Source: Bacteroidales bacterium
GTDB taxonomy: Bacteria > Bacteroidota > Bacteroidia > Bacteroidales > P3
DNA: 64,000 nucleotides
Assembly (NCBI GenBank): GCA_017616895.1
Contig: JAFZXE010000022.1
Location: forward strand, 1 to 64,000
Direction: 5' to 3'
Shown: positions 51,332 to 64,000 of the stretch, in pieces
Layout of the letters: every line of letters begins with the position of its first letter
Numbering within the stretch: position 1 is the first letter of the stretch
Program-made: the position numbers and the translations under genes
The notes under the pieces: model-generated
Databases searched by the model: none
Told to the model about the DNA's origin: nothing
Seen by the model: only the letters and a program-made list of their open reading frames with translations

Positions 51332-52792
51332 TCAGACTTTCACAGGGTCGGTGGTGAACTCTATGCCCAGGCGTTTGAATATTTTTCTATCCACCTCGCT
51401 GAGCATCTTGGTGGCGTGCACCTGGCAGCCTTTCAGCTGTGGCAGGCAGTCGAGAGCCTTGCGGCAGTTGGGGTCGGATAGGCTCAGTATCGAGAGCGTC
51501 ACCAGCACCTCGTCGCTATGCAGGCGCGGCGCCTTGCTGTGCAGCATCTCCACTTTGGTTTTCTGTATAGGAGCGATGGTCTGCTGCGGTATGAGTTGCA
51601 GCGAGTGGTCGATGCCAGATAGGTGTTTCAGCGCGTTGATGATGAGAGCCGCACTTGCCGAAAGCAGGCTGCTTGAATGAGCTGTGATGATTGTGTCGTC
51701 GGCCAGCTGTATCGCAGCCGAGGGCGCGTTCTCCTGTTCCTCGCGTTTGTGGGCGGCTACGGTCGTGGGTCTGTCGTCGGTGGTCAGCTTCAGCTGCTTC
51801 ATCAGCAACTTTATCTTGTTTATCTCGCTCTCCGTGGCGCGTCCGTCGGCAAAGTTGCACAGGGTGTTGTAGTAGCGGCGTATTATTTCGTCTTTCGACG
51901 CCTCGCTGCACACCTCGTCGTCCGAGATGCAGAAACCTGCCATGTTCACTCCCATGTCGGTAGGCGACTTGTAGGGGTTCTCGCCGAAGATGCTCTCGAA
52001 TATGGCGTTCAGCACGGGGAATATCTCTATGTCGCGGTTGTAGTTCACCGTCGTCTTGCCATAGGCCTCGAGGTGGAACGGGTCGATCATGTTCACATCG
52101 TTCAGGTCGGCGGTGGCCGCCTCGTAGGCCACGTTCACAGGGTGCTTCAGCGGGATGCTCCAGATCGGGAAGGTTTCGAATTTGGCGTAGCCGGCTTTCA
52201 CGCCGTGCTTGTTTTCTAGATAGAGTTGGCTGAGGCATACAGCCATCTTGCCACTTCCGGGTCCCGGCGCCGTCACCACCACCAGCGGGTGTGTCGTCTC
52301 GATATATTCGTTCTTGCCGAATCCCTCGTCCGAGCAGATATGTTCAACATCTGTCGGATAATTTTTTATAAGGTGCAGGTATGCCACCTTTATGCCCATG
52401 CGCTCCAGCCGCTCACGGTAGGCGACGGCGCCGCTCTGTCCGTTGAAATGGGTGATGGCCACCGCTCCCACCTGCAGGCCGCGGCTCTGGAACTCGTCCC
52501 TCAGGCGCAGCACGTCGGCGTCGTAGGTGATGCCTAGGTCGGCGCGCACCTTGTTCTTCTCAATGTCCTCGGCGTTGATGGCGATGATGATTTCGAGTTG
52601 GTTGCTGAGCTGCATCAGCATCCTCAGTTTGCTGTCGGGTTGGAAGCCCGGGAGAACACGACTGGCGTGGTAGTCGTCGAAAAGTTTACCGCCGAATTCA
52701 AGATAGAGTTTGTTGCCGTACTGCGAGATGCGCTCACGGATGTGCTCTGACTGTATCCTAAGATACTTGTCGTTGTCGAAACCTTGTTTCAT
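51332..52792 (-). CDS. DUF1846 family protein
   Basis: 486 aa, cytosolic. MKQGFDNDKYLRIQSEHIRER and LYLEFGGKLFDDYHASRVLPG are the characteristic start of DUF1846 proteins; the P-loop-like TAPGPGSGKMAVCLSQLYLE suggests nucleotide binding (inference). Function in cells is not known. First gene of the operon with rsgA. Confidence 0.93.
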   Translation of the reverse strand: MKQGFDNDKYLRIQSEHIRERISQYGNKLYLEFGGKLFDDYHASRVLPGFQPDSKLRMLMQLSNQLEIIIAINAEDIEKNKVRADLGITYDADVLRLRDEFQSRGLQVGAVAITHFNGQSGAVAYRERLERMGIKVAYLHLIKNYPTDVEHICSDEGFGKNEYIETTHPLVVVTAPGPGSGKMAVCLSQLYLENKHGVKAGYAKFETFPIWSIPLKHPVNVAYEAATADLNDVNMIDPFHLEAYGKTTVNYNRDIEIFPVLNAIFESIFGENPYKSPTDMGVNMAGFCISDDEVCSEASKDEIIRRYYNTLCNFADGRATESEINKIKLLMKQLKLTTDDRPTTVAAHKREEQENAPSAAIQLADDTIITAHSSSLLSASAALIINALKHLSGIDHSLQLIPQQTIAPIQKTKVEMLHSKAPRLHSDEVLVTLSILSLSDPNCRKALDCLPQLKGCQVHATKMLSEVDRKIFKRLGIEFTTDPVKV

Positions 52793-53024: not shown

Positions 53025-54185
53025 ATGAAAAAATCACTAATGATATTTATTGTTGCTGTACTTTGCATAGGACAGGTGTTTGGGCAGCAGGGTATGGCGA
53101 AGATGACCTATTATGGGCATCTCTATTTAGAGTCGAGTATCAACGGGAAGCCCGCCCGTATGATTTTTGACACGGGTTCGCCATATACATGCTTGGATAG
53201 CATATTTGTGGCCGAGAGTGGCCTTGAGTTCGACTCTATTGAATGGGTCACGGCGAGCGGTGCTGGAGACGGTGTGGTGGAGGTGCCGGTGGTTCTCAAC
53301 AAACTGTCCTACACGTTTGGAGAGAGGGAGTTCATAAACGAGATGACCCCTGTTATGCAAATCAAGCCCATCGTTGGCGACTTTGCCGACGGCATTATAG
53401 GCATGTCGCATTTGAGCGACAAGGTAATTTCGATTGACTATGTCGCTGATCAGATGCGAATTTCGGACAGTTTGGGCGACACTGCTGGATACACAGCCAT
53501 ACCCATACGTTACGAGAACAACCATATATATGTGCCGATTACTTTAGGCATTGCCGACAGCAGATGGATGTCGGGCGATGTCATGCTGGATCTCGGCAGT
53601 GGCAATTCGGTGTCAATCCCTGGTTGGGAAGAGGTGCGTGAAATCTCGCCGCGCATTTGCTATACCGACATCAATGCGGGTGTCGGCGGTGGGTCGTCGG
53701 GATGTTTTTTCAGGGCGAAAAGTGTGACGGTTGGACCGTTCACATTCGACAGCGTGACTATGGATTACAGGAACAATACAGTCGGTGCGCTTTCGACAGG
53801 GAGTGACTGTCTTGGTATCGCGGGGAACGCTATCTGGGAACGGTTCGACATGATAATCGACATGCCAGGCAGGATGTTGTACCTGAAAAAGAACGCCCAC
53901 TATGGCAAGCCGTTCGGAAGTCCTCTAACAGGCTTCTTCCCTTCCAACCGTAGCATAACCCTTGGCTGCTGGATTGTGAACGGTATCTGTACAGGGTCCA
54001 ACGCCGAAAAGGTGGGTCTCAGATGCGGCGACCATATCATCGCAGTCAACGGGCGCAGCGTGAGAGAGATAGGTTTCGATGAAATGCGCACCTTCTTCGA
54101 CGGGATGAAAAGCATCACGCTGACCGTCCAAAGGGACGACGGCACTGAGGAGATAAGTTTCGATTTTGACAAGCCTAAGATATAA
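53025..54185 (+). CDS. Exported retropepsin-like aspartyl protease with PDZ domain
   Basis: 386 aa; signal peptide ending QVFGQQ (~21). First Asp motif MIFDTGSPYTCLDS (Asp49); second lobe DVMLDLGSGNSVSIP, where DLGS replaces DTGS; DGIIGM and DCLGIAGN are the matching flap/hydrophobic motifs. Residues ~305-386 are a PDZ domain (SNAEKVGLRCGDHIIAVNGRSV). Proteins of this architecture are common in Bacteroidales but their substrates are unknown. The stop codon lies inside a 20-bp-arm palindrome. Confidence 0.85.
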   Translation: MKKSLMIFIVAVLCIGQVFGQQGMAKMTYYGHLYLESSINGKPARMIFDTGSPYTCLDSIFVAESGLEFDSIEWVTASGAGDGVVEVPVVLNKLSYTFGEREFINEMTPVMQIKPIVGDFADGIIGMSHLSDKVISIDYVADQMRISDSLGDTAGYTAIPIRYENNHIYVPITLGIADSRWMSGDVMLDLGSGNSVSIPGWEEVREISPRICYTDINAGVGGGSSGCFFRAKSVTVGPFTFDSVTMDYRNNTVGALSTGSDCLGIAGNAIWERFDMIIDMPGRMLYLKKNAHYGKPFGSPLTGFFPSNRSITLGCWIVNGICTGSNAEKVGLRCGDHIIAVNGRSVREIGFDEMRTFFDGMKSITLTVQRDDGTEEISFDFDKPKI

Positions 54186-54756: not shown

Positions 54757-54879
54757 CGTCAGGTTTGAAATCAAGCGCAACAGGAATCTTATGTGGCGTT
54801 CGTGTATTAGTTCTGTCGAGGTTGAGTATTACAAATTCTCTTGTTCCGTTGTTGCGGATGATACATCCGCAACAACGGG
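54757..54879. repeat. 123-bp RHS-locus intergenic repeat, copy 1
   Basis: Begins GCGTCAGGTTTGAAATCA and ends with the palindrome GTTGCGGATGATACATCCGC AACAACGGG. A same-length copy lies at 57937-58059. Confidence 0.75.
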
Positions 54880-54884
54880 CAATC

Positions 54885-55424
54885 TTAATGTTTTATTCTA
54901 TTGTTCACCTTCTCTAAAATATCAGGGTAATGTTGTATCGTACAAAGCAGATTCATTAGAGCTGTCACGCTGTTGTCATAATTGCAATTTGGTTCTTCAA
55001 TAATACGGACTGTTCGCATTTCTCTACTATTGAAAAAAGTGAAATCAATAATTTGTTTTTCCGTTTCAATAAAAGGACCATCACACTTTTGAGGTAATAT
55101 CTGATCTTTATTATATAAACCACATAACATTGTTGTTAAACTATCAACGATATCGGTTCTACCAATTTGAAAAGAAGTGGTTTGAACTTCCTTAACCCAT
55201 AATATCTTTCGCGAGAGTGAATCCTCTATAAAACGTTTGGTAATATGGTTTTCGCCCACAACAGTAATAGAACTACCCGTCACCGTATATTTGTAGTATC
55301 GTTCATCGACATTGTTACGATAATCGACAACCACACTATCAAAACAAGATGACATACTTTGAGCAGACGCCAACATACCGCATAAAACGAATAGTAAAAC
55401 TAAAATTATCCTATCGGCCTTCAT
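54885..55424 (-). CDS. Putative immunity protein A (exported)
   Basis: 179 aa. ATG at 55424 opens a signal peptide MKADRIILVLLFVLCGMLASAQ. No known domain: SMSSCFDSVVVDYRNNVDE.., RDMRTVRI-like EMRTVRIIEEPN. It overlaps the end of RHS cassette A by 14 nt, so it is co-translated with it. As the gene directly behind a polymorphic-toxin tip it is best read as its cognate immunity protein, placed in the periplasm or outer membrane (inference). Confidence 0.6.
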   Translation of the reverse strand: MKADRIILVLLFVLCGMLASAQSMSSCFDSVVVDYRNNVDERYYKYTVTGSSITVVGENHITKRFIEDSLSRKILWVKEVQTTSFQIGRTDIVDSLTTMLCGLYNKDQILPQKCDGPFIETEKQIIDFTFFNSREMRTVRIIEEPNCNYDNSVTALMNLLCTIQHYPDILEKVNNRIKH

Positions 55425-56253
55425 ACTTGTCAATTTGTTTATTTATAAATTTTTTATACGATTCTGTGGTCTTCTCCCAATACGGTCCGTTCACTACGTT
55501 AAGATACGCCTGCTGATGATTCCTATCCTTATCGGAACACCCTTGAATTTTGTGGCTAAACCATTCGTGGCATATCAGGCTAGAAGCAATGTTTTCAACT
55601 GTAGCATCATATGCTTTATACAAATTGTCCGTCGCATAAATAATACTGTTCTCACCCATTTTTCCTTCCAAACCATAAACAGTTGCAAAATTGCAGAGAC
55701 CATCTTTATAGTAAACCTTTCCATCTGCAACATCAGACATGGAAAATATGGTTCCTAAAACCTCGTCACCTTCAAAATATGACATTATGCTTGTGAAAAT
55801 TCTTGATTTAGCATCACCGGACATTTTTCCATATTCCAGATCCAACGGATTGGCACTTTCATCGCTTCTATATAGTTCTTCAACACTCATGCCATTGAAT
55901 TCCATACTTCCATCATATATAACCACGGCTCCGGTGAAACCTTCTTTTGTACAGCCTCTGAATCCCCCATCGGAACCAAATACAGGATTAATTTCCTCCC
56001 CCTCCGGATCCACAATCTTCATCGGATTCCAGGCACAATAGTTGTAGGGGGACAGACTTGGGTATTTATCACTCATCGGATCAACGCTTAACCACAAACT
56101 CAGGTCGGAGTTATAATACCTCGCACCGAAGTAATGGTAGCCCGTTTCTGAGTCTTTCTCTTTGCCCGAGGAGTCTGGGTGAAAAACAGGGGTGTTTTCG
56201 AGACTGATTTGGCTCGAAAAAGTGGTGGTTTTATATGTGGATTGATAGGGCAT
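55411..56253 (-). CDS. Orphan RHS tip cassette A: HExxxH metallopeptidase-like
   Basis: 280 aa, no signal peptide. Residues 1-85 are the end of an RHS core (TPVFHPDSSGKEKDSETGY, FGARYYNSDLSLWLSVDP, DKYPSLSPYNYCAWNP, VDPEG). Residues 86-280 form a unique tip with ICHEWFSHKIQG (His229, Glu230, His234) and a following HQQAYLNVV (His246), a likely zinc site. Upstream, ATGACAGAACCACCCCTG-TAA runs straight into the ATG. Predicted secreted toxin tip; lacks the RHS shell and is probably a recombination donor or is expressed as is. Confidence 0.75.
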   Translation of the reverse strand: MPYQSTYKTTTFSSQISLENTPVFHPDSSGKEKDSETGYHYFGARYYNSDLSLWLSVDPMSDKYPSLSPYNYCAWNPMKIVDPEGEEINPVFGSDGGFRGCTKEGFTGAVVIYDGSMEFNGMSVEELYRSDESANPLDLEYGKMSGDAKSRIFTSIMSYFEGDEVLGTIFSMSDVADGKVYYKDGLCNFATVYGLEGKMGENSIIYATDNLYKAYDATVENIASSLICHEWFSHKIQGCSDKDRNHQQAYLNVVNGPYWEKTTESYKKFINKQIDKYEGR

Positions 56254-56437
56254 TTACAGGGGTGGTTCTGTCATATTTTTAGTGGAGTGCCGGATTCGGA
56301 AATCCAGGGGGATGGAGTTGCGGATGACACATCTGCAACAACTTTTTTTTCACCCTGTCATTTTGTTTTGTGAATAGTTTATCTTTAACATCTTTTCTTT
56401 TGAACGTTCGTGATTGTAAATCCAGCATAACAGAGGC

Positions 56438-57007
56438 TCAATCATTAATTCCATGGTATTTTAGCAATTGAACAGCGCCCCTTGAATAACTTATATCCCA
56501 TTGGGGTGCACGATCATCGCCCATATCTTCAAAATAAAATACACGTCCATTATATTCCCCTAAGATGAGCTTGTGGCTTATATAAGAAAAAGATGTAGTG
56601 CTCTTTGTCGGGGTCATGAAAGGCGGTATAACGCCGATTATCTGAACATAGTGACCGTCTATCAAACAACAACCTCTAAGATTTTCTTGCATGTATGGCA
56701 AATCTGAGTAGTATGCGTGACAAACGAGTGTGTCGTCACCGACTTGCTCAAACTGCATTGTTAAAATGTAAGTTACTTTTTCGCTTTTCCTGCGTATGCT
56801 ATCGGCAATTGGATTGAGTGATAAAATACACATGGTTTTTCGAAGGATGGCGGTGTCTGAAAACTCGTATAGACACAACCTATAGTTCACCCGTTCCACC
56901 TTTTCGGTTTTAGTCCTCCTAAGCACTTTTCTATGACAAGACACAACTTGAGCTTGAATAATCGATGCTGAAAGGGAAAACAATATCAATATGACAATTT
57001 TTCTCAT
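56438..57007 (-). CDS. Putative immunity protein B (exported)
   Basis: 189 aa. Signal peptide MRKIVILILFSLSASIIQAQ. The mature part carries LKKS-like basic patches and motifs DTAILRKTMCILSLNP and LVCHAYYSDLPYMQ; no family recognised. Starts 11 nt after RHS cassette B stops. Confidence 0.55.
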   Translation of the reverse strand: MRKIVILILFSLSASIIQAQVVSCHRKVLRRTKTEKVERVNYRLCLYEFSDTAILRKTMCILSLNPIADSIRRKSEKVTYILTMQFEQVGDDTLVCHAYYSDLPYMQENLRGCCLIDGHYVQIIGVIPPFMTPTKSTTSFSYISHKLILGEYNGRVFYFEDMGDDRAPQWDISYSRGAVQLLKYHGIND

Positions 57008-57018
57008 TGTTGGTGGCT

Positions 57019-57885
57019 CTAATAGGGAATATATCGGTTTTCCTTAGTGAAATAAATTGAAAAGCTTGGCGGCAATAAGTGTTTGGCAGAAAATAGATCA
57101 CGTATTTGGTCGGCGAATAACCTATCGCTATTACTAGGGACACCTTTTAAAGGGTGACTATGATTCATTTCTCGTATGGTATACCCATATTGCAATCTAC
57201 CCAAAAACAAATAGGACATACTCGGTTCTGCGGCAATATGGTGTAACTTACCATCTTCCTGAATTTCATTATATGGTTTAAAATGTGCAGTAGATACAAA
57301 ATTTAGACCCCGTTTCCCTTCCATACCACATTTTGCATGGGACACTTCCATTTCTTGGTCAGCTACAGTATTGGCAAAAAACTTGAAAAGCTTTTCGCCA
57401 TTGTCATCTCCGCGAACCTGAAATACATCGTATGCTCCTTTCTGCTCTTTGTAAGAGAAACTATGTTTCTTGTGAGATTCTATTGTCCCATAATTAAACT
57501 CCACGGAATTGCCTGGTCCTTCAACACGATCTCCGTTATCATCAACCCGATAAAAAGCATCCTTATCGTTATTCTTGATTCGATTAACCACTTCCCCATA
57601 TTTATTAATTTCCCAATCATCCATCTCAGCCCCATCTGGGTCCACCAACTTCACCGGATTCCAAGCACAATAATTGTACGGACTCAAACTGGGGTACTTG
57701 TCTGCCATCGGATCAACACTTAACCACAAGCTCAAATCGGAGTTGTAATATCTTGCTCCGAAATAGTAATAGCCTGTTTCTGAGTCCTTCTCCTTGCCCG
57801 AGGAGTCTGGGTTAAAAACAGGGGTGTCTTTCGGACAGTTTTGGTTCGAAAAATTGGTGTTTTTGTATGTGGTTTGCGACGGCAT
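57019..57885 (-). CDS. Orphan RHS tip cassette B: JAMM-type metallopeptidase-like
   Basis: 288 aa. Residues 1-85 share the RHS core end (TPVFNPDSSGKEKDSETGY..VDPDG). The tip (86-288) contains NHSHPLKGVPSNSD (His242, His244, Ser251, Asp254), the JAMM/JAB pattern HxHx6SxxD, with an upstream Glu in DQEMEVSH as candidate general base. JAB-fold tips are known among polymorphic toxins. Leader peptide-like ATGACAAAACAAAACCAG-TAA precedes the ATG. Confidence 0.75.
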   Translation of the reverse strand: MPSQTTYKNTNFSNQNCPKDTPVFNPDSSGKEKDSETGYYYFGARYYNSDLSLWLSVDPMADKYPSLSPYNYCAWNPVKLVDPDGAEMDDWEINKYGEVVNRIKNNDKDAFYRVDDNGDRVEGPGNSVEFNYGTIESHKKHSFSYKEQKGAYDVFQVRGDDNGEKLFKFFANTVADQEMEVSHAKCGMEGKRGLNFVSTAHFKPYNEIQEDGKLHHIAAEPSMSYLFLGRLQYGYTIREMNHSHPLKGVPSNSDRLFADQIRDLFSAKHLLPPSFSIYFTKENRYIPY

Positions 57886-57936
57886 TTACTGGTTTTGTTT
57901 TGTCATCTGTTACCCTTGTTTCTGTTGTGTTTGGAA

Positions 57937-58059
57937 GCGTCAGGTTTGAAATCAGGTGCAACGGGAGTCTATGTAGCGTTCGTATGTTTGTTCTGTCGAG
58001 GTCGATAATTACAAATTCTCTTGTTCAACCATTGCGGATGTGTCATCCGCAACAACGGG
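57937..58059. repeat. 123-bp RHS-locus intergenic repeat, copy 2
   Basis: GCGTCAGGTTTGAAATCA .. TTGCGGATGTGTCATCCGC AACAACGGG; copy of 54757-54879. It lies between RHS cassette B and partner C. Confidence 0.75.
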
Positions 58060-58123
58060 TTTTTATTCAGCGGCGATTAAGGTCGAGACCTGCGGTCAGG
58101 TGGGCAAATCTGTCACAACAAGA

Positions 58124-58783
58124 TTATCTATCAAACCAATTGGGAAGCTCCTTATCTTTAATTCGTAGCACTTTTTTTATCTGCTTTAATCTATATCGAT
58201 ACGAATAATGATACATACTGTAGTTATATTGAAAATCCGTTGTACTTTCTATCCTTTCATAGGGAACCACATAATAATCAATTACCACCTTGCTTACATA
58301 TACTGATATGGAAACATTTGCCACAATTGTGTCTGCAAATTCATAACTAAAAAAACGTGTTTTGCTTATGTCGAAATGTGTGTGTTTCCTGTTGCGATGC
58401 TGTTTTAATTTATAGTCTTTTTTTAAAAAGTCATTAAACATTGTGTTTCGGTATGATTTTGAAGAGTCAGGGGCACAAATGGACCAATAGCTTTGCTCTA
58501 TATCATGCAATAAATTATTAACGATAATTCCGTTGGAGAAAAACACATCCATAAAACCCAGATAACTCGAGGTGTCGGGTGTTATATTCTTCAAATTTTT
58601 CATCCAGAATGATCCAAAATTAGGTTCCATGGCTCTATTCCCATGCGACAACACGTTTTCACTCTCCACAACAGTTACTATATACATTGTGTCAGTATAT
58701 ACTGTGCAGTCGGTTTGCGAATATATAATTTGATTGAGAGTCAAAAGAAGTATTAATATTGCTGTAGCCCTCATTTTATTCAT
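58124..58783 (-). CDS. Putative immunity protein C (exported)
   Basis: 219 aa. ATG at 58783 (MNKMRATAILILLLTLNQIIYSQ), which overlaps the end of RHS cassette C by 8 nt; the ATG at 58774 is an alternative. Signal peptide then TDCTVYTDTMYIVTVVE. Tyr-rich C-terminal end with YYVVPYERIESTTDFQ. No known family. Confidence 0.55.
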   Translation of the reverse strand: MNKMRATAILILLLTLNQIIYSQTDCTVYTDTMYIVTVVESENVLSHGNRAMEPNFGSFWMKNLKNITPDTSSYLGFMDVFFSNGIIVNNLLHDIEQSYWSICAPDSSKSYRNTMFNDFLKKDYKLKQHRNRKHTHFDISKTRFFSYEFADTIVANVSISVYVSKVVIDYYVVPYERIESTTDFQYNYSMYHYSYRYRLKQIKKVLRIKDKELPNWFDR

Positions 58784-59615
58784 CAATTAGTACTTTCTGC
58801 AAATTAGGATTGTTTATCATTTTGTTAATGTCATTTTGGTTAGGATAATCTGTTCCTGGTGTATAATTTCCAATTCCATCTGGTGCGTCATCGTTATCAT
58901 AGAATAGTGTATGAAATATTTCATGAACACGACTCCTCTTGTTGTCATATTTACTGTTCATTATTATTCCTCGGTGTTTATCGGTTTTTCCTACGGCGAG
59001 TCTGTCATTCTCATCTCCGAAGAACTCACCGTCTGGAAGCTTTTCGAAAGAATTGCCAATGTTTACGCCCTCAAAGTAATCGTGTAATCCAATTGAGGCT
59101 CCGTCATAGTCAGATTTATCAACGGAAATAAAATTCAGCTCAAAGGAAACCGAATATCCAGAATATTCTCCATCTGTAACTGTATAATTGGCATTGTTTA
59201 GTTGTTCGTTTATGCTTTTTTGTATCTTTTTTACGTCTTTAGGACTATATAGATATCGCATTTCTTTATTAGTCCTTAATTCTGGTCCAGTCCTAACATA
59301 ATAATTAGCTGTAATTACCAGTTTTTTATCTCTATTATTAACTTTACAAACTCCATCCCTTCCATCCGGATCCACTATTTTCATCGGATTCCATACACAA
59401 TAGTTGTAAGGGCTTAGTGAAGGGTACTTGTCACTCATTGGGTCAACACTCAACCACAAACTCAGGTCGGAGTTATAGTACCTCGCACCGAAGTAGTGAT
59501 AGCCTGTTTCGGAGTCTTTCTCTTTGCCCGAGGAGTCCGACTGAAAAACAGGGGTGTTTTCAGGCCTTTTAGAGGGTCTGGAATAGGTTTTTTTATATGT
59601 GGGTTGTATCGGCAT
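58776..59615 (-). CDS. Orphan RHS tip cassette C: HExxH zincin-like
   Basis: 279 aa. RHS core end in residues 1-85 (TPVFQSDSSGKEKDSETGY .. YCVWNP .. VDPDG). The tip has RVHEIFHTLFYDNDDAPDG (His231, Glu232, His235, then Asp residues 240-243 as third-ligand candidates), the classic zincin motif. The preceding GIIMNSKYDNKRS and GVNIGNSFEK segments are Asp/Asn-rich. Overlaps partner C. Leader ATGATAGAACCGACCCAG-TAA precedes the ATG. Confidence 0.8.
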   Translation of the reverse strand: MPIQPTYKKTYSRPSKRPENTPVFQSDSSGKEKDSETGYHYFGARYYNSDLSLWLSVDPMSDKYPSLSPYNYCVWNPMKIVDPDGRDGVCKVNNRDKKLVITANYYVRTGPELRTNKEMRYLYSPKDVKKIQKSINEQLNNANYTVTDGEYSGYSVSFELNFISVDKSDYDGASIGLHDYFEGVNIGNSFEKLPDGEFFGDENDRLAVGKTDKHRGIIMNSKYDNKRSRVHEIFHTLFYDNDDAPDGIGNYTPGTDYPNQNDINKMINNPNLQKVLIDE

Positions 59616-59703
59616 TTACTGGGTCGGTTCTATCATGTTTTTAGTGGATTGCTGGATTGCAAATCCGGCATGACGGGTGATTATTTGTGTGTTAGTCATC
59701 TTT

Positions 59704-60231
59704 TTATTGTTCTTTAAATAGCACTTTGCTGCTACCTTTTAACGAGTAGTCCTCAAATCTCAATGAACATATACTTCTGTATTTATACGTTTTATGTCTC
59801 ATGATCTGGGGACCACAATATGCAGACTCATACCCCTGAAATAATGTTACGTTGTTTCCACAATGCAATTCAACAGTTCCAATCGGCAACAAGGATACAG
59901 TGTCCGAAATATGATGTGTATTATAGAGGGGTTTAAATATATCCCATCTTCTTTTTAAATGCACATCAATAAATACTGTGTCTTCATAATAGAATCGGTA
60001 TAAACCTCTTGACATCTTGTGTCCGGTTATTGTTTCTTTGTTATTTCCAGAATCATACAACAAAACAAGAATTCGATTTTTTTTGTTTTTTACTGAAAAG
60101 AATGATATGTTACATTTCATTGGGGAAATCCTATCGACATCTCCATTAGCTTGCGAATAGGCATCTTTTGTGGGATGCCAAAGTATTATTAATAAACTCA
60201 ACCCCAAGATTATTTTAATACTTTCTCTCAT
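59704..60231 (-). CDS. Putative immunity protein D (exported)
   Basis: 175 aa. ATG at 60231 gives a signal peptide MRESIKIILGLSLLIILWHP..YSQ; upstream in-frame codons were rejected because they put a Lys-rich stretch before it. Overlaps the end of RHS cassette D by 17 nt. Mature region Asn/His/Tyr-rich, no recognised domain. Confidence 0.55.
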   Translation of the reverse strand: MRESIKIILGLSLLIILWHPTKDAYSQANGDVDRISPMKCNISFFSVKNKKNRILVLLYDSGNNKETITGHKMSRGLYRFYYEDTVFIDVHLKRRWDIFKPLYNTHHISDTVSLLPIGTVELHCGNNVTLFQGYESAYCGPQIMRHKTYKYRSICSLRFEDYSLKGSSKVLFKEQ

Positions 60232-61045
60232 GATATGGTAGCATATATTGTGAATCTGTTTTGATTTTTTCTTCGTTTTTGTTGACCTCACTTATTTTAG
60301 ACCAATTACTATAACCGTTTTGATTGGAAAGATGATTTATCTTAGTCTGAACATCCCCCTGCCATGAATTTCGAACATTATCTTTTTTAGGATTCATTAT
60401 TAAACCCTCAAAACCAAAGTCTCTTGCTTTTACCTCATCATACAAGTCAACATTTACACCGGATGACTCCCATGACTTATTTGGACTCTTACTAATGTCA
60501 AATCCAATTTCGCCATATTCGAATTGAACAGCATGTTCTGTTTCGTGTTTAAGGTTCACTATAGAATTTGTTCCCTGTTTTTCATTTTTCCACATATTGT
60601 AATTTATATACAATTTATTTCCATCTGTTGTAAATTCTCCACCGCTACCACCATCCTCAGTATAACCATTGAATACGTATGTTTCTGTGGATTTTTTCAA
60701 ATCGTTAAAACGAAGCCTAAATCCTTTATTAAATACCCTTTCAATAAAAACCAGTATCCTGTCAGCAAATGATGAATATTCAACCTCCATACCATCAGGA
60801 TCCACCAACTTCATCGGATTCCAAGCACAATAGTTGTAAGGACTCAACGAAGGGTATTTGTCACTCATCGGATCAACGCTTAACCACAAACTCAAGTCCG
60901 AATTATAATACCTCGCTCCGAAGTAGTGGTAGCCAGTCTCTGCATCTTTCTCTTTGCCCGAGGAGTCTGGGTGAAAAACAGGGGTGTTTTTCGGGCTGTT
61001 TTGGCTTGAAAATGAGGTGGTTTTATATGCGAATTGAGAGGGCAT
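60215..61045 (-). CDS. Orphan RHS tip cassette D: HExxH zincin-like
   Basis: 276 aa. RHS core end in residues 1-85 (TPVFHPDSSGKEKDAETGY..VDPDG). Tip motif NLKHETEHAVQFEYGEIGF (His167, Glu168, His171) with DLYDEVKARDFG (Glu204) as likely third ligand, i.e. an HExxH + E gluzincin-like arrangement. The tip resembles cassette E's (HxxxHAxQFxxGExGF in common). Overlaps partner D. Confidence 0.8.
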   Translation of the reverse strand: MPSQFAYKTTSFSSQNSPKNTPVFHPDSSGKEKDAETGYHYFGARYYNSDLSLWLSVDPMSDKYPSLSPYNYCAWNPMKLVDPDGMEVEYSSFADRILVFIERVFNKGFRLRFNDLKKSTETYVFNGYTEDGGSGGEFTTDGNKLYINYNMWKNEKQGTNSIVNLKHETEHAVQFEYGEIGFDISKSPNKSWESSGVNVDLYDEVKARDFGFEGLIMNPKKDNVRNSWQGDVQTKINHLSNQNGYSNWSKISEVNKNEEKIKTDSQYMLPYHERKY

Positions 61046-61082
61046 TTATTGGGTTGGTTCTGTTATGTTTGTAGAGTACTTA

Positions 61083-61829
61083 TTAGTACTGAGTATTATC
61101 TCTATTTGTTTGATTATATAATCCCCAATAACGATTAGCTAGATATTTGTAAAACTGTAATTGCGAGTAAAGTGTTGATATGTCATAATCCCCTTTGGAA
61201 AAAAACTGGAGGGCACATAAATCATCCTCATTATCGTTAACCCGCAGTAGAAAAAGATTGTTTTTTTTGCTGCTCATACACCTCTTTAGGACGCTGATTT
61301 CCTCATGATATACAATCATTTTAATATAGCGTATTTCCGATTTTTTTCGTACAATGGAATCTATTTGTTCTAACGTATGGCTATATGCTTTATGCACTCC
61401 GGAAAATTCCTCCGGCTCAATCCTATCCGGAATCCAATAATCTAGAATATATGGGGAAAAATAATAACCATTTGATAGCACGGTTGCGTGTAGTACATAC
61501 AGACTCGAATCAATGGTATATTTACTCATCGAGTTCAAACTCACAATCGAACATAATAAATATCTTGCTGGATCTTTATGGGGAAAAGGGGGCCTATATA
61601 AATCCTTAAAAGTGTATATCGGAGTCAGGTCATAGACACCCTCGGTGCAATCGCAGAAGTCGAAATAGTCATTAGGGATTTTTGCTGGTGTTGTATCATT
61701 TATAATGTTGTGAGCCACGTCCACAACATCATAGGATATGCGAAAAGGAACCTCTTTTATGGTTTTACAAGAGATAAACAATACACTAAACCCAATGATG
61801 CCCAAAACAATTATACTCTTAATCTTCAT
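61083..61829 (-). CDS. Putative immunity lipoprotein E
   Basis: 248 aa lipoprotein: MKIKSIIVLGIIGFSVLFISC, lipobox Cys21. Start codon overlaps the RHS-E stop by one base (TAATG), indicating reinitiation. Mature part Tyr/Asp-rich, no known family. The lipid anchor would hold it in the outer or inner membrane facing the periplasm. Confidence 0.6.
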   Translation of the reverse strand: MKIKSIIVLGIIGFSVLFISCKTIKEVPFRISYDVVDVAHNIINDTTPAKIPNDYFDFCDCTEGVYDLTPIYTFKDLYRPPFPHKDPARYLLCSIVSLNSMSKYTIDSSLYVLHATVLSNGYYFSPYILDYWIPDRIEPEEFSGVHKAYSHTLEQIDSIVRKKSEIRYIKMIVYHEEISVLKRCMSSKKNNLFLLRVNDNEDDLCALQFFSKGDYDISTLYSQLQFYKYLANRYWGLYNQTNRDNTQY

Positions 61830-62683
61830 TATTTAGCCCTTTTAAAATAGTAATTGCTGGATGAATGCAGCCCATTTATATCGTAACCAGGTGTTTTACC
61901 GCTCCGTTCTTCTGGATAGTGTCCTCTCCATCCATCTTCTGCTGAAAAAGATTTTGAGCCTATGCTATTTTTGTATTCATTTAGGTTATATCCAGCGGAT
62001 GTTCCACTAACGCGAGCTGCCCATGCATGCGCAACTTCCTCATCGGATTCATCATAGCCCATATATCGCCACCCAGGTAAATTTACAAAAATAGTAAAAC
62101 CAAATTCTCCATCACAAAACTGTTTGGCATGGTATATCTCCTCGCATAAAGCCCTTTCTGGGGCTAAATTTGAACTCACTAATTCTGTTTCACGTCCCAG
62201 AGTAAAACCGATAGTCAGAATCCGTTCGTCTGATAAAGACACTGCACCCGAAATTTCCTGACCTTTACTATTTATGCGGAAATCTTCCCATTGGTCAAAT
62301 CTATAAACGGTGGATTTATCGGCATCTAAATACTTATACACAGAAGCGAACTCATCATTATAACACTCATGGGATGGATTTATCATATTTTTAATCTCCT
62401 GTGTAACGCTGGCACTATCGATAATCATCCCATCTGGATCCACCAACTTCATTGGATTCCAAGCGCAATAATTATAAGGTGACAAACTCGGATACTTGTC
62501 GCTCATCGGGTCAACCGATAACCACAAACTCAAATCCGAATTATAGTACCGTGCTCCGAAGTAGTGGTAGCCTGTCTCCGAGTCTTTCTCCTTGCCCGTG
62601 GATAACGGCTGAAAAATATGGGTGTTTTCAGGCCTTTTGGAGGTTATGGAACTGGCAATTTTGTATGTGAATGGAAGTTGCAT
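61829..62683 (-). CDS. Orphan RHS tip cassette E: degenerate EExxH metallopeptidase-like
   Basis: 284 aa. RHS core end in residues 1-85 (more diverged first 30 residues: QPLSTGKEKDSETGY..VDPDG). The tip aligns by eye with cassette D: LCEEIYHAKQFCDGEFGF (Glu181, Glu182, His185) replaces HETEH, with YDESDEEVAHAWAA in the place of D's DEVKAR. The first zinc His is Glu, so catalysis may be lost or use a different metal site. Overlaps partner E by one nucleotide. Confidence 0.75.
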   Translation of the reverse strand: MQLPFTYKIASSITSKRPENTHIFQPLSTGKEKDSETGYHYFGARYYNSDLSLWLSVDPMSDKYPSLSPYNYCAWNPMKLVDPDGMIIDSASVTQEIKNMINPSHECYNDEFASVYKYLDADKSTVYRFDQWEDFRINSKGQEISGAVSLSDERILTIGFTLGRETELVSSNLAPERALCEEIYHAKQFCDGEFGFTIFVNLPGWRYMGYDESDEEVAHAWAARVSGTSAGYNLNEYKNSIGSKSFSAEDGWRGHYPEERSGKTPGYDINGLHSSSNYYFKRAK

Positions 62684-62730: not shown

Positions 62731-63483
62731 TCACCGAAAAGGTGGAGGTGTTTCAGATGGAATAAGCGTGACACCATAATGTTGCATAATCATGTTATGA
62801 TGTTCTCGATAAACATTTTTTTCAAAAGTGTCATTTATCATATTTGTGTCATTTATATGCCAACAGGCTATTGATTCTATGGCATCCAAACACATTGCAA
62901 TATTCTCATCAATATTATCCGATAACATATTGGCAAAAATATGTGATATACAAGTTCCATCATAGGTAGACAATGAAGAATATCTTGTATGGTTTTCTGC
63001 TGAGCGTTTGTCGGCTTTGACATAACTCGTCGTTGGCAATTGCAGTAGCAACATATTTAAAAGTGATGATTCTAAGTTGGTTAGGGAAAATCTGTATTCT
63101 CCTTGTTTTTCAATGGGATAGTATACGAAAGCATGGCAAGAGTCATCCTTAAAGATAGCGTCTAATACAATGCAATAGCGACCATCGGTATCATTAGAGT
63201 AACATATAGAATCAAAATGTGGTTTTATCTTTTTATTTATTTTCAGTTTGATACATGTGTCCTCTTGTAAATCGGGTCTAAAACGACTGCAAAGCTGTTG
63301 CTTTTCATCAAAAAAAAGTGTAGAATCTAAAAAGCTGTTGTATATATGCCCCCCCATAGAATAACACCATGTATTCTTACTATCCGCAATTTTATGGATA
63401 GATACAATCGGCACACTGCCCTCATTGTTAGCACATGATTGTAATAATACTATAATAAGTACTGACAAATATGTTTTGTTCAC
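62731..63483 (-). CDS. Orphan putative immunity lipoprotein F
   Basis: 250 aa from a GTG at 63483: MNKTYLSVLIIVLLQSC, lipobox Cys17, then ANNEGS. No toxin gene precedes it; only a short ORF remnant does. Mature region has repeated Cys/His-poor beta segments, no recognised domain. Same size and export mode as partner proteins A-E, hence the interpretation as a stranded immunity gene. Confidence 0.55.
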   Translation of the reverse strand: MNKTYLSVLIIVLLQSCANNEGSVPIVSIHKIADSKNTWCYSMGGHIYNSFLDSTLFFDEKQQLCSRFRPDLQEDTCIKLKINKKIKPHFDSICYSNDTDGRYCIVLDAIFKDDSCHAFVYYPIEKQGEYRFSLTNLESSLLNMLLLQLPTTSYVKADKRSAENHTRYSSLSTYDGTCISHIFANMLSDNIDENIAMCLDAIESIACWHINDTNMINDTFEKNVYREHHNMIMQHYGVTLIPSETPPPFR

Positions 63484-63629: not shown

Positions 63630-63652
63630 GTGCCGGATTTGTAATCCAGCAC
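63630..63652. repeat. GTGCCGGAT-type palindrome
   Basis: GTGCCGGATTTGTAATCCAGCAC, followed by a related TGGGATTTGAAATCCCGTCA element. Confidence 0.55.
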
Positions 63653-63764
63653 TCCATTTTATTGGGATTTGAAATCCCGTCATTAGGCTAATCACCCTTT
63701 TATTTTTATCGATACAAATTTTTAATTTAAGTTTCATTTTTTAGCAATCCTCATCTGAATTTGA

Positions 63765-63866
63765 TCAATTCCACGAGGCTCTGCCAAGGTGGTCGGGGTG
63801 GTAGAAGTAGCGCTGCGGTTCTGCTCCGAGATCCGTGCGGGCGTTGTCAATTGCGCTTGAAACTAG
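63765..63866 (-). pseudogene. RHS core fragment
   Basis: 33 codons: SAIDNARTDLGAEPQ then YFYHPDHLGRASWN and a stop. YFYHPDHLG is the hallmark of the RHS core a little upstream of the cassette homology. In normal RHS proteins it continues SASWITD; here it ends in stop. It shows a full-length RHS gene once stood upstream of the cassettes on this strand. Confidence 0.65.
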
Positions 63867-63902: not shown

Positions 63903-64000
63903 TCATTCAGGGTTAGTTGACTTGAGCAGAGGTATTTCCTGATGTTCGATTTCGAGGGCTTGTTTATCTTTGGCATTGAGTGGGCTGACAACAGATTGAC
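63903..64000 (-). CDS. 3' end of an unidentified protein (partial)
   Basis: 31 sense codons running off the window edge: QSVVSPLNAKDKQALEIEHQ..IPLLKSTNPE, stop TGA at 63903-63905. In the same frame as the RHS fragment downstream. Balanced composition suggests real coding; identity unknown. Confidence 0.45.
   Translation of the reverse strand, partial: QSVVSPLNAKDKQALEIEHQEIPLLKSTNPE

What the first reader, a model, noticed from the sequence alone, without database searches (positions are those of the whole stretch)
54885..62683. Bank of five orphan RHS tips, each with its own exported partner
Five minus-strand genes share residues 1-85 (end of an RHS core through VDPDG) but have unrelated or distantly related C-terminal domains of about 190-200 residues. 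Each is followed by a gene overlapping or within 11 nt of its end. None has the RHS shell or a signal peptide. Known biology: RHS and other polymorphic toxins swap tips by recombination between conserved cores and orphan tip-immunity pairs. Inference: this is a donor library for a full-length RHS gene nearby. Five tandem pairs is a large bank.
Basis: partly seen in the sequence, partly recalled or inferred. Interest (0 to 1): 0.9.

Follow-up and report, generated by a model that had tools for sequence, protein, structure and literature searches.

The report
Bank of spare bacterial toxin tips
A gut bacterium carries a stack of interchangeable toxin ends, each with a probable antidote gene, apparently left over from a large toxin gene of which only a scrap remains nearby; related species visibly swap such ends.

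Summary
The five tip + exported-partner pairs are real, but only residues 29-85 are RHS core; residues 1-28 are a separate leader. A sixth tip lies 1.6 kb past the window, and the draft genome holds 21 tips in five loci. Relatives show the predicted exchange: near-identical toxin end plus partner on different cores, and identical leaders with unrelated ends; in 9 of 9 leader-sharing pairs the fitted breakpoint falls inside the 171-nt core. The two closest relatives have no bank at this site. No full-length RHS was found in the draft; a 17-residue fossil of an RHS body sits at the head of the window's arm. So "donor library" is supported, "for a full-length RHS gene nearby" is not: that gene appears destroyed, unless one is unassembled (two contigs end inside RHS cores). 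Unlike described orphan tips, the cores are diverged, displaced tips keep a start codon and open frame whose peptide is unconstrained, and arms diverge from promoter-bearing heads. By motif the window's tips look like metal-dependent hydrolases; nothing was assayed. Verdict: new variant of RHS C-terminal displacement.

The parts
61829..62683 (-). tip 5 (284 aa): leader 1-28, RHS core 29-86, C-terminal domain with EExxH, alignable with tip 4
61083..61829 (-). partner of tip 5, lipobox-like N-terminus, probable immunity
60215..61045 (-). tip 4 (276 aa): HExxH, weak Peptidase_M91 likeness (14.1 bits, cut-off 25); family also on an RHS ORF with 638 aa before the core in L115
59704..60291 (-). partner of tip 4, signal-like N-terminus (from an internal Met)
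58776..59615 (-). tip 3 (279 aa): HEIFH, the same in L081 and L107 (the fourth row of A4, L111, is the L107 gene again); orphan homologue in G014
58124..58786 (-). partner of tip 3, signal-like N-terminus
57019..57885 (-). tip 2 (288 aa): Toxin-JAB1 (PF15659, 57.7 bits, cut-off 21)
56438..57007 (-). partner of tip 2, signal/lipobox-like N-terminus
55411..56253 (-). tip 1 (280 aa): HExxxH motif; look-alike tips in G046 and G055 (compared by eye only)
54885..55433 (-). partner of tip 1, signal/lipobox-like N-terminus
62731..63483 (-). partner-like protein with signal-like N-terminus and no intact tip before it; inferred to be the immunity gene of a lost head tip
63771..63821 (-). fossil of an RHS body: 17 residues, 14 identical to residues 2801-2817 of the 3107-aa RHS of G041, whose core begins at residue 2853
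62600..62683 (-). example (tip 5) of the 84-nt leader, codons 1-28, present on 5 of 5 window tips; conserved as DNA, not as protein
63903..64000 (-). 3' end of a Bro-N gene (contig C4:63903-64766) in the centre of the two-armed bank; a truncated tyrosine recombinase and a sixth, + strand tip follow beyond the window

Best explanation
It is one arm of a two-armed bank of RHS tip-immunity cassettes. Shown by sequence: a cassette consists of leader, 57-codon RHS core, variable end and a partner with an export signal; in relatives such cassettes have been exchanged between species with breakpoints inside the core; the site is without a bank in the two closest relatives (gain here, or loss in both); an RHS-body fossil lies at the head of this arm. 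Inferred: each time an RHS gene (or a shortened head copy) took up a new tip at its core, the old tip and its immunity gene were pushed downstream, and the stack grew outward. Displaced cassettes carry a leader that supplies a start codon and open frame, so that the tip, and by coupling its overlapping immunity gene, can still be translated from read-through transcripts. In the window the RHS gene itself has since been destroyed, leaving a reservoir of tips and periplasmic immunity proteins without a detected delivery gene. The ends are probably envelope-acting metal-dependent hydrolases.
For: Exchange: G055 and G046 share end plus partner at 95-100% DNA identity on cores only about 70% identical; a G046 tip and L113 share 99.5% of the end with unrelated leaders; four pairs have an identical 84-nt leader and unrelated ends; fitted breakpoints at +5 to +101 of the core in 9 of 9 leader-sharing pairs. 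Displacement: in G041 a 3107-aa SpvB/RHS gene is followed by a partner and then by a leader-bearing tip, cut to 122 aa. RHS-body match at the heads, in residues of the G041 RHS: all 2852 in G041 C33, 2649-2852 in G014 C2, 2807-2852 in G000 C24 and C25, 2801-2817 in C4. Site: neighbours of the bank adjoin in G041 and G014. Constraint: core pN/pS 0.09 with diverged synonymous sites; end pN/pS 0.19 between orphans of two species. Translation: 14 of 14 leaders keep ATG and an open frame; a neutral simulation never exceeded 12 of 14 in 20,000 runs. Heads: box TAnnTTTGC before 5 of 6 G000 heads by position (the exception is window tip 5) and 0 of 13 displaced tips. Export signal or membrane segments in 21 of 21 partner genes, 0 of 21 tips.
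Against: No expression or activity data. The promoter contrast is weaker in other genomes (9 of 28 heads, 3 of 40 displaced), and the window's own arm has no such box in 63484-64099, so its cassettes may be silent. The fossil is short (tblastn E 5e-4 against the five loci). The frame just before 62731-63483 that might be the end of the lost tip has no significant match. The simulation assumes a star tree. Constraint on the cassettes could have acted while they sat on RHS genes in other hosts. One of 21 tips (C10:160082) has no partner among the ORFs listed.
Confidence: 0.72

Rival explanations
1. Immunity store: selection acts mainly on the exported partners, which protect against the same tips fired by neighbours; the tip genes survive because the overlapping immunity genes depend on their translation. 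It does not exclude the main reading.
For: Export signal or membrane segments in 21 of 21 partner genes; four of five window pairs overlap; only 2 of 21 tips hold a TAnnTTTG box in their last 250 nt, so partners probably depend on the tip's transcript; a partner-like gene without a tip is intact at 62731-63483. Orphan immunity as protection is proposed for CDI (PMC3150448, passages seen).
Against: Ends are more constrained than partners (pN/pS 0.19 against 0.34 for tip 3; 0.22 against 0.52 for the C24 tip), which a passenger tip would not need. In the between-species pairs compared, partners are 23-77% identical, so cross-protection is unproven.
Confidence: 0.3
2. Stand-alone small effectors: the 280-aa proteins are themselves exported and act without an RHS shell.
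For: Start codon and frame are kept; 5 of 6 G000 heads have a promoter-like box; 7 of 19 genomes of the genus with at least five core matches have no RHS_repeat match (tallied).
Against: A signal-like N-terminus in 0 of 21 tips; the leader peptide is unconstrained (pN/pS 0.84; differences 750/799/750 over codon positions), unlike a secretion signal; the core stays strongly constrained, as if it still had to fit an RHS shell.
Confidence: 0.12
3. Decaying debris of old RHS loci without function.
For: An RHS body is reduced to a fossil and the central recombinases of C4 and C24 are cut short.
Against: 21 of 21 core matches have no stop inside; core and ends show purifying selection; exchange between species is recent in relatives.
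Confidence: 0.06

Closest known systems
RHS C-terminal displacement with arrays of dissociated tips (Jackson et al. 2009, PMC2935791; passages seen)
   Same: Core fragments with variable C-termini stacked by displacement; exchange by homologous recombination in the core, there proposed to run through circular intermediates.
   Different: There, in the E. coli strains compared, attached and dissociated cores are identical and displaced tips lie silent downstream of an intact rhs gene. Here cores differ at 52% of four-fold codons, no intact gene was found, arms diverge, and displaced tips have their own start.
Orphan CdiA-CT/CdiI and Rhs-CT/RhsI modules (Poole et al. 2011, PMC3150448; passages seen)
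   Same: Toxin/immunity pairs without the delivery part; up to eleven pairs in one E. coli cdi locus.
   Different: [quoted passage not shown] here 14 of 14 leader-type tips have ATG and an open frame.
Polymorphic toxin cassettes, including TcdB/TcaC (SpvB) RHS systems and Tox-JAB-1/Imm65 of Bacteroidetes (Zhang et al. 2012, PMC3482391; passages seen)
   Same: Arrays of stand-alone toxin-immunity cassettes; SpvB-type RHS systems that include Bacteroidetes; Tox-JAB-1 whose immunity protein has a signal peptide and lipobox.
   Different: In the passages I saw there is nothing on a leader, promoter-bearing heads, RHS fossils or mapped breakpoints. Whether the partner of tip 2 is Imm65 was not shown (no relevant family match).

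Membership tests
Orphan rhs-CT/rhsI module (displaced RHS tip) | fragment of RHS core up to the conserved DPxG, then a variable C-terminal domain | tested here: met
   TIGR03696 on residues 29-85/86 in 5 of 5; 86 tips from G000 and relatives fall into 58 C-terminal clusters, singletons included
Orphan rhs-CT/rhsI module (displaced RHS tip) | cognate immunity gene directly downstream | tested here: inconclusive
   a partner gene follows 5 of 5 window tips; neutralisation cannot be tested here
Orphan rhs-CT/rhsI module (displaced RHS tip) | same toxin domain found fused to long RHS elsewhere | tested here: met
   C24 tip with the RHS of G014 (2673 aa before the core, open at the contig end; ends 53% identical); window tip 4 with L115 (638 aa; 61%); C28 tip with L095 (267 aa, contig-cut; 73%), G002 with 2726 aa in the same cluster
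Orphan rhs-CT/rhsI module (displaced RHS tip) | lies downstream of an intact rhs gene | tested here: not met
   none found in the draft; fossil at 63771-63821; draft 88% complete, two contigs end in RHS cores
Rhs array as in Jackson 2009 | core fragments within a locus identical | tested here: not met
   five window copies 71-86% identical to the reference; four-fold codons differ in 52%, two-fold in 35% of comparisons among 14 tips of the genome
SpvB/TcdB-type RHS toxin | SpvB domain and RHS shell in the protein | tested here: not met
   window tips of 276-288 aa show only the core among RHS features
Integron-like cassette array | site-specific recombination at one defined site | tested here: not met
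   fitted breakpoints spread from +5 to +101 of the core
Acquired interbacterial defence (orphan immunity) cluster (definition recalled) | immunity genes without toxin genes | tested here: not met
   21 tips kept without stops

The most novel reading that the evidence does not exclude
Shell-free tip banks are mobile, self-sustaining units: a dedicated 72-84-nt leader acts as a portable translation-initiation and homology arm for each cassette, heads carry their own promoter, and the pool of tips and exported immunity proteins is kept and traded between gut Bacteroidales even in genomes that have lost every RHS delivery gene.
Probability: 0.25. Interest if true: 0.72.

Novelty: new variant of a known kind. 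Interest (0 to 1): 0.52.

Why it matters
It gives sequence evidence, between species, for how polymorphic toxin tips move: breakpoints can be placed inside a 171-nt core, and 'what selection sees' can be split into leader (frame only), core (protein) and toxin end. A genome with 21 tips and no detected delivery gene makes testable whether orphan tip banks serve attack, immunity or DNA trade. The genus offers a natural series from intact RHS gene to fossil.

Tried and rejected
TEN_YD-shell (PF25023) as a probe for full RHS genes: dropped, because it gave nothing over cut-off in 118 genomes although RHS ORFs of 2000-3100 aa are among them. Site-specific recombination at the leader/core joint by the neighbouring tyrosine recombinase: suspected from three pairs with a break at +5 to +11, rejected when all nine pairs were fitted. 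That fit uses two fixed identity rates (0.98, 0.72), and the nine pairs are not all independent. Leader as a secretion signal: rejected. pS of 0.70 as proof of saturation: withdrawn, since two-fold codons inflate it; fractions at four-fold and two-fold codons are used instead. One search counted some G000 tips twice (26 rows for 21 tips); one search replaces it. Leader distance against core synonymous distance: no correlation (Spearman 0.02). Shared flanks between G000 banks and the first set of fetched relative loci: none beyond partners, recombinase, a two-gene passenger unit and one weak (25%) match of a 369-aa gene. Structure: tip 3 model mean pLDDT 49, best PDB match E 0.13, though several top rows are metzincins (class recalled); tip 4 model pLDDT 31, useless. 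A profile of tip 4 and relatives matched solved structures only through the RHS core, apart from one chance-level row (E 0.75). Plasmid and phage records: 17 and 1 with partial matches, 0 of them covering 80% of tip 4. Literature: in the rows listed (titles and starts of abstracts only) I saw no paper on such banks in Bacteroidales; three papers were opened, for passages only. The library holds open-licence papers only.
Full report
What is there. The shared part is a five-copy 283-nt repeat, 71-86% identical to its reference copy. Residues 29-85/86 match Rhs_assc_core at 1.9e-15 to 3.9e-16 in 5 of 5; residues 1-28 do not. Four partners overlap the tip's end, one starts 11 nt after it. The bank is AT-rich: 0.36-0.41 G+C in the 2-kb blocks from 54 to 64 kb, 0.46-0.57 in the others except 20-22 kb at 0.40.

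Whole genome. The window is contig C4:1-64000 of a 2.61-Mb, 31-contig draft, 88% complete. Rhs_assc_core has 21 matches in five loci: C4 six, C10 two, C24 three, C25 five, C28 five; none has a stop inside. The sixth C4 tip is on the + strand at 65558-66487, with a partner at 66484-66963. Loci C4, C24 and C25 have two arms that diverge from a centre. The centre holds a truncated tyrosine recombinase in C4 and C24 (Phage_int_SAM_5 only) and a Bro-N gene in C4; other genes there were not scanned. C10 and C28 are cut by contig ends inside an RHS core.

Delivery gene. In G041 of the same genus (Tb.RUG.96, by its contig length) a 3107-aa RHS with SpvB, TcdB-mid and RHS repeats stands at a head; its neighbour has a Por_Secre_tail domain. 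After it come a partner and a leader-bearing tip cut to 122 aa. SpvB is found in 23 of 99 genomes searched and not in G000; RHS_repeat in 61 of 118 and not in G000 (the only sub-threshold hit is in a 305-aa ORF without an RHS core). The RHS shell of G041 finds nothing in G000, but this search had no positive control. Of the 71 same-genus genomes (own included), 51 have core matches, 19 have at least five, and 7 of those 19 lack an RHS_repeat match (tallied; core counts include the cores of full RHS genes). The genomes are in many contigs, so absence is not proven.

A fossil. Between the partner-like gene 62731-63483 and the Bro-N gene, minus-strand 63771-63821 encodes 17 residues, 14 identical to residues 2801-2817 of the G041 RHS, whose core starts at 2853. 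Other heads keep more of the same RHS body: matches to residues 2807-2852 in G000 C24 and C25 and 2649-2852 in G014 C2, and the whole body in G041 C33. I infer that the window's arm was stacked behind an RHS gene that is now destroyed. An open frame just before 62731-63483 might be the end of its tip, but it has no significant match.

The site. In G041 and G014, the closest relatives by the sigma-54 gene, the 486-aa gene at window 51332-52792 (95-96% identical) and the sigma-54 gene at C4:67442 (72%) adjoin with about 0.5-0.7 kb between them. In G000 14.6 kb lie between them, including the bank and an aspartyl-protease/PDZ gene (53025-54185) that may or may not belong to it. This is a gain here or a loss in both relatives.

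Exchange. A G055 head tip and a G046 displaced tip share end and partner at 95-100% DNA identity; their cores are 70% and leaders 43% identical. A G046 tip and L113 share 99.5% of the end, 97% of the second core half, 80% of the first half, 85% of the 600 nt after the tip, and have unrelated leaders. Conversely, 8 pairs share at least 90% of the 84 nt before the core with unrelated ends, four of them 100%, three without a mismatch over 130 nt. For the nine pairs with at least 95% identity in the last 60 nt, chosen without regard to the ends, the fitted breakpoint is at +5, +5, +11, +32, +38, +44, +66, +80 and +101 of the 171-nt core. Some tip families of G000 recur on large RHS proteins in relatives.

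What selection sees. G000 has 21 tips: 14 carry the leader, 5 are heads with other starts, 2 are cut by contig ends. Among the 14, the core has pN/pS 0.09, with differences at 52% of four-fold and 35% of two-fold codons; its first ten codons are less diverged (29% of four-fold, 32% of two-fold). The leader has pN/pS 0.84 and even differences over codon positions (750/799/750), yet differs at only 30% of sites against 66% in the 84 nt upstream. Still 14 of 14 keep ATG and an open frame; a star-tree neutral simulation gave at most 12 of 14 in 20,000 runs, and all 14 without a stop with probability 0.002. In other species a second leader family (10 rows, two pairs of them identical) has NTG at the same place in 10 of 10 and near-even codon-position differences (0.34/0.40/0.30); these rows were picked by a protein pattern, so their open frame is no independent test. 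So the frame, but not the peptide, is kept. Between an orphan of G000 (tip 3) and an orphan of G014 the end has pN/pS 0.19 and the partner 0.34.

Transcription. A box TAnnTTTG (the Bacteroidetes -7 box, recalled) precedes 5 of the 21 G000 tips: the five heads with their own starts, and 0 of the 14 leader-type tips; the two contig-end tips could not be judged. By position alone it is 5 of 6 heads, window tip 5 being the exception, and 0 of 13 displaced tips. In other genomes 9 of 28 heads and 3 of 40 displaced tips have TAnnTTTGC (Fisher p 0.02), a weaker contrast under a crude rule for heads. The window's arm has no such box in 63484-64099.

What the tips are. Tip 2 is Toxin-JAB1 above cut-off. 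Tips 3 and 4 have HExxH, tip 1 HExxxH, tip 5 EExxH. Over 86 distinct tips 31 have HExxH or HExxxH, against a mean of 1.2 and a maximum of 6 in 500 shuffles. Elsewhere in the genome one Toxin-JAB1 and one Ntox44 are above cut-off; M91, M12 and DUF5675 matches are below it. Of 21 partner genes (20 beside tips plus 62731-63483) 17 score as signal- or lipobox-like and 4 as membrane-anchored, and of 21 tips 0 do, by a home-made rule without a benchmark; so the targets are probably in the envelope.

Against what is known. Arrays of displaced tips, exchange by core recombination and circular intermediates were proposed in 2009 (PMC2935791, passages); toxic orphan modules were shown in 2011 (PMC3150448, passages); cassette arrays and SpvB-type RHS systems, Bacteroidetes included, were catalogued in 2012 (PMC3482391, passages). 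Different here: diverged cores, kept starts with unconstrained leaders, two divergent arms with promoter-like heads, and no intact RHS gene found. That makes it a new variant of a known kind.

Noticed in passing
contig C4:67442-69763 (L022:13943-16264), beyond the window: A sigma-54 factor fused in frame to Peptidase_M23 and LysM domains. Of 40 same-genus genomes with a match to the sigma-54 part, 34 have an open frame of 757-906 aa there, so the fusion may be genus-wide; domains were checked in G000 only.
   Followed up: partly
window 54848-54876, 58034-58056, 59654-59666, 63635-63677: Short palindromes (GCGGATGnnnCATCCGC, GGATTnnnAATCC) between cassettes and near gene ends, two of them inside a 90-nt repeat; possibly REP-like elements or terminators.
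   Followed up: no
L025:7731-9349 (contig C25:91730-93348): A two-gene unit in the centre of another bank (AbiEi/AbiEii-like, name recalled, not scanned) is 94% identical in G041, where it lies between tips, and in L104 (DBXB01000068): recent transfer of passenger genes.
   Followed up: partly
L066:13392-14735: The gene next to the full-length RHS of G041 carries a type IX secretion sorting domain, a hint at how this RHS protein may be displayed.
   Followed up: no
L167:206-2465 and L168:1-1908: Two contigs from a viral collection carry RHS tips of this core type; L167 shows tip-partner-tip order, L168 an RHS end beside collagen-like repeat genes.
   Followed up: no
L066:15299-16333, L022:11361-12005, L024:10945-11472, L063:6379-6684: A tyrosine recombinase sits in several banks: 344 aa with Phage_integrase domain in G041, cut to 214, 175 and 101 aa elsewhere.
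   Followed up: partly
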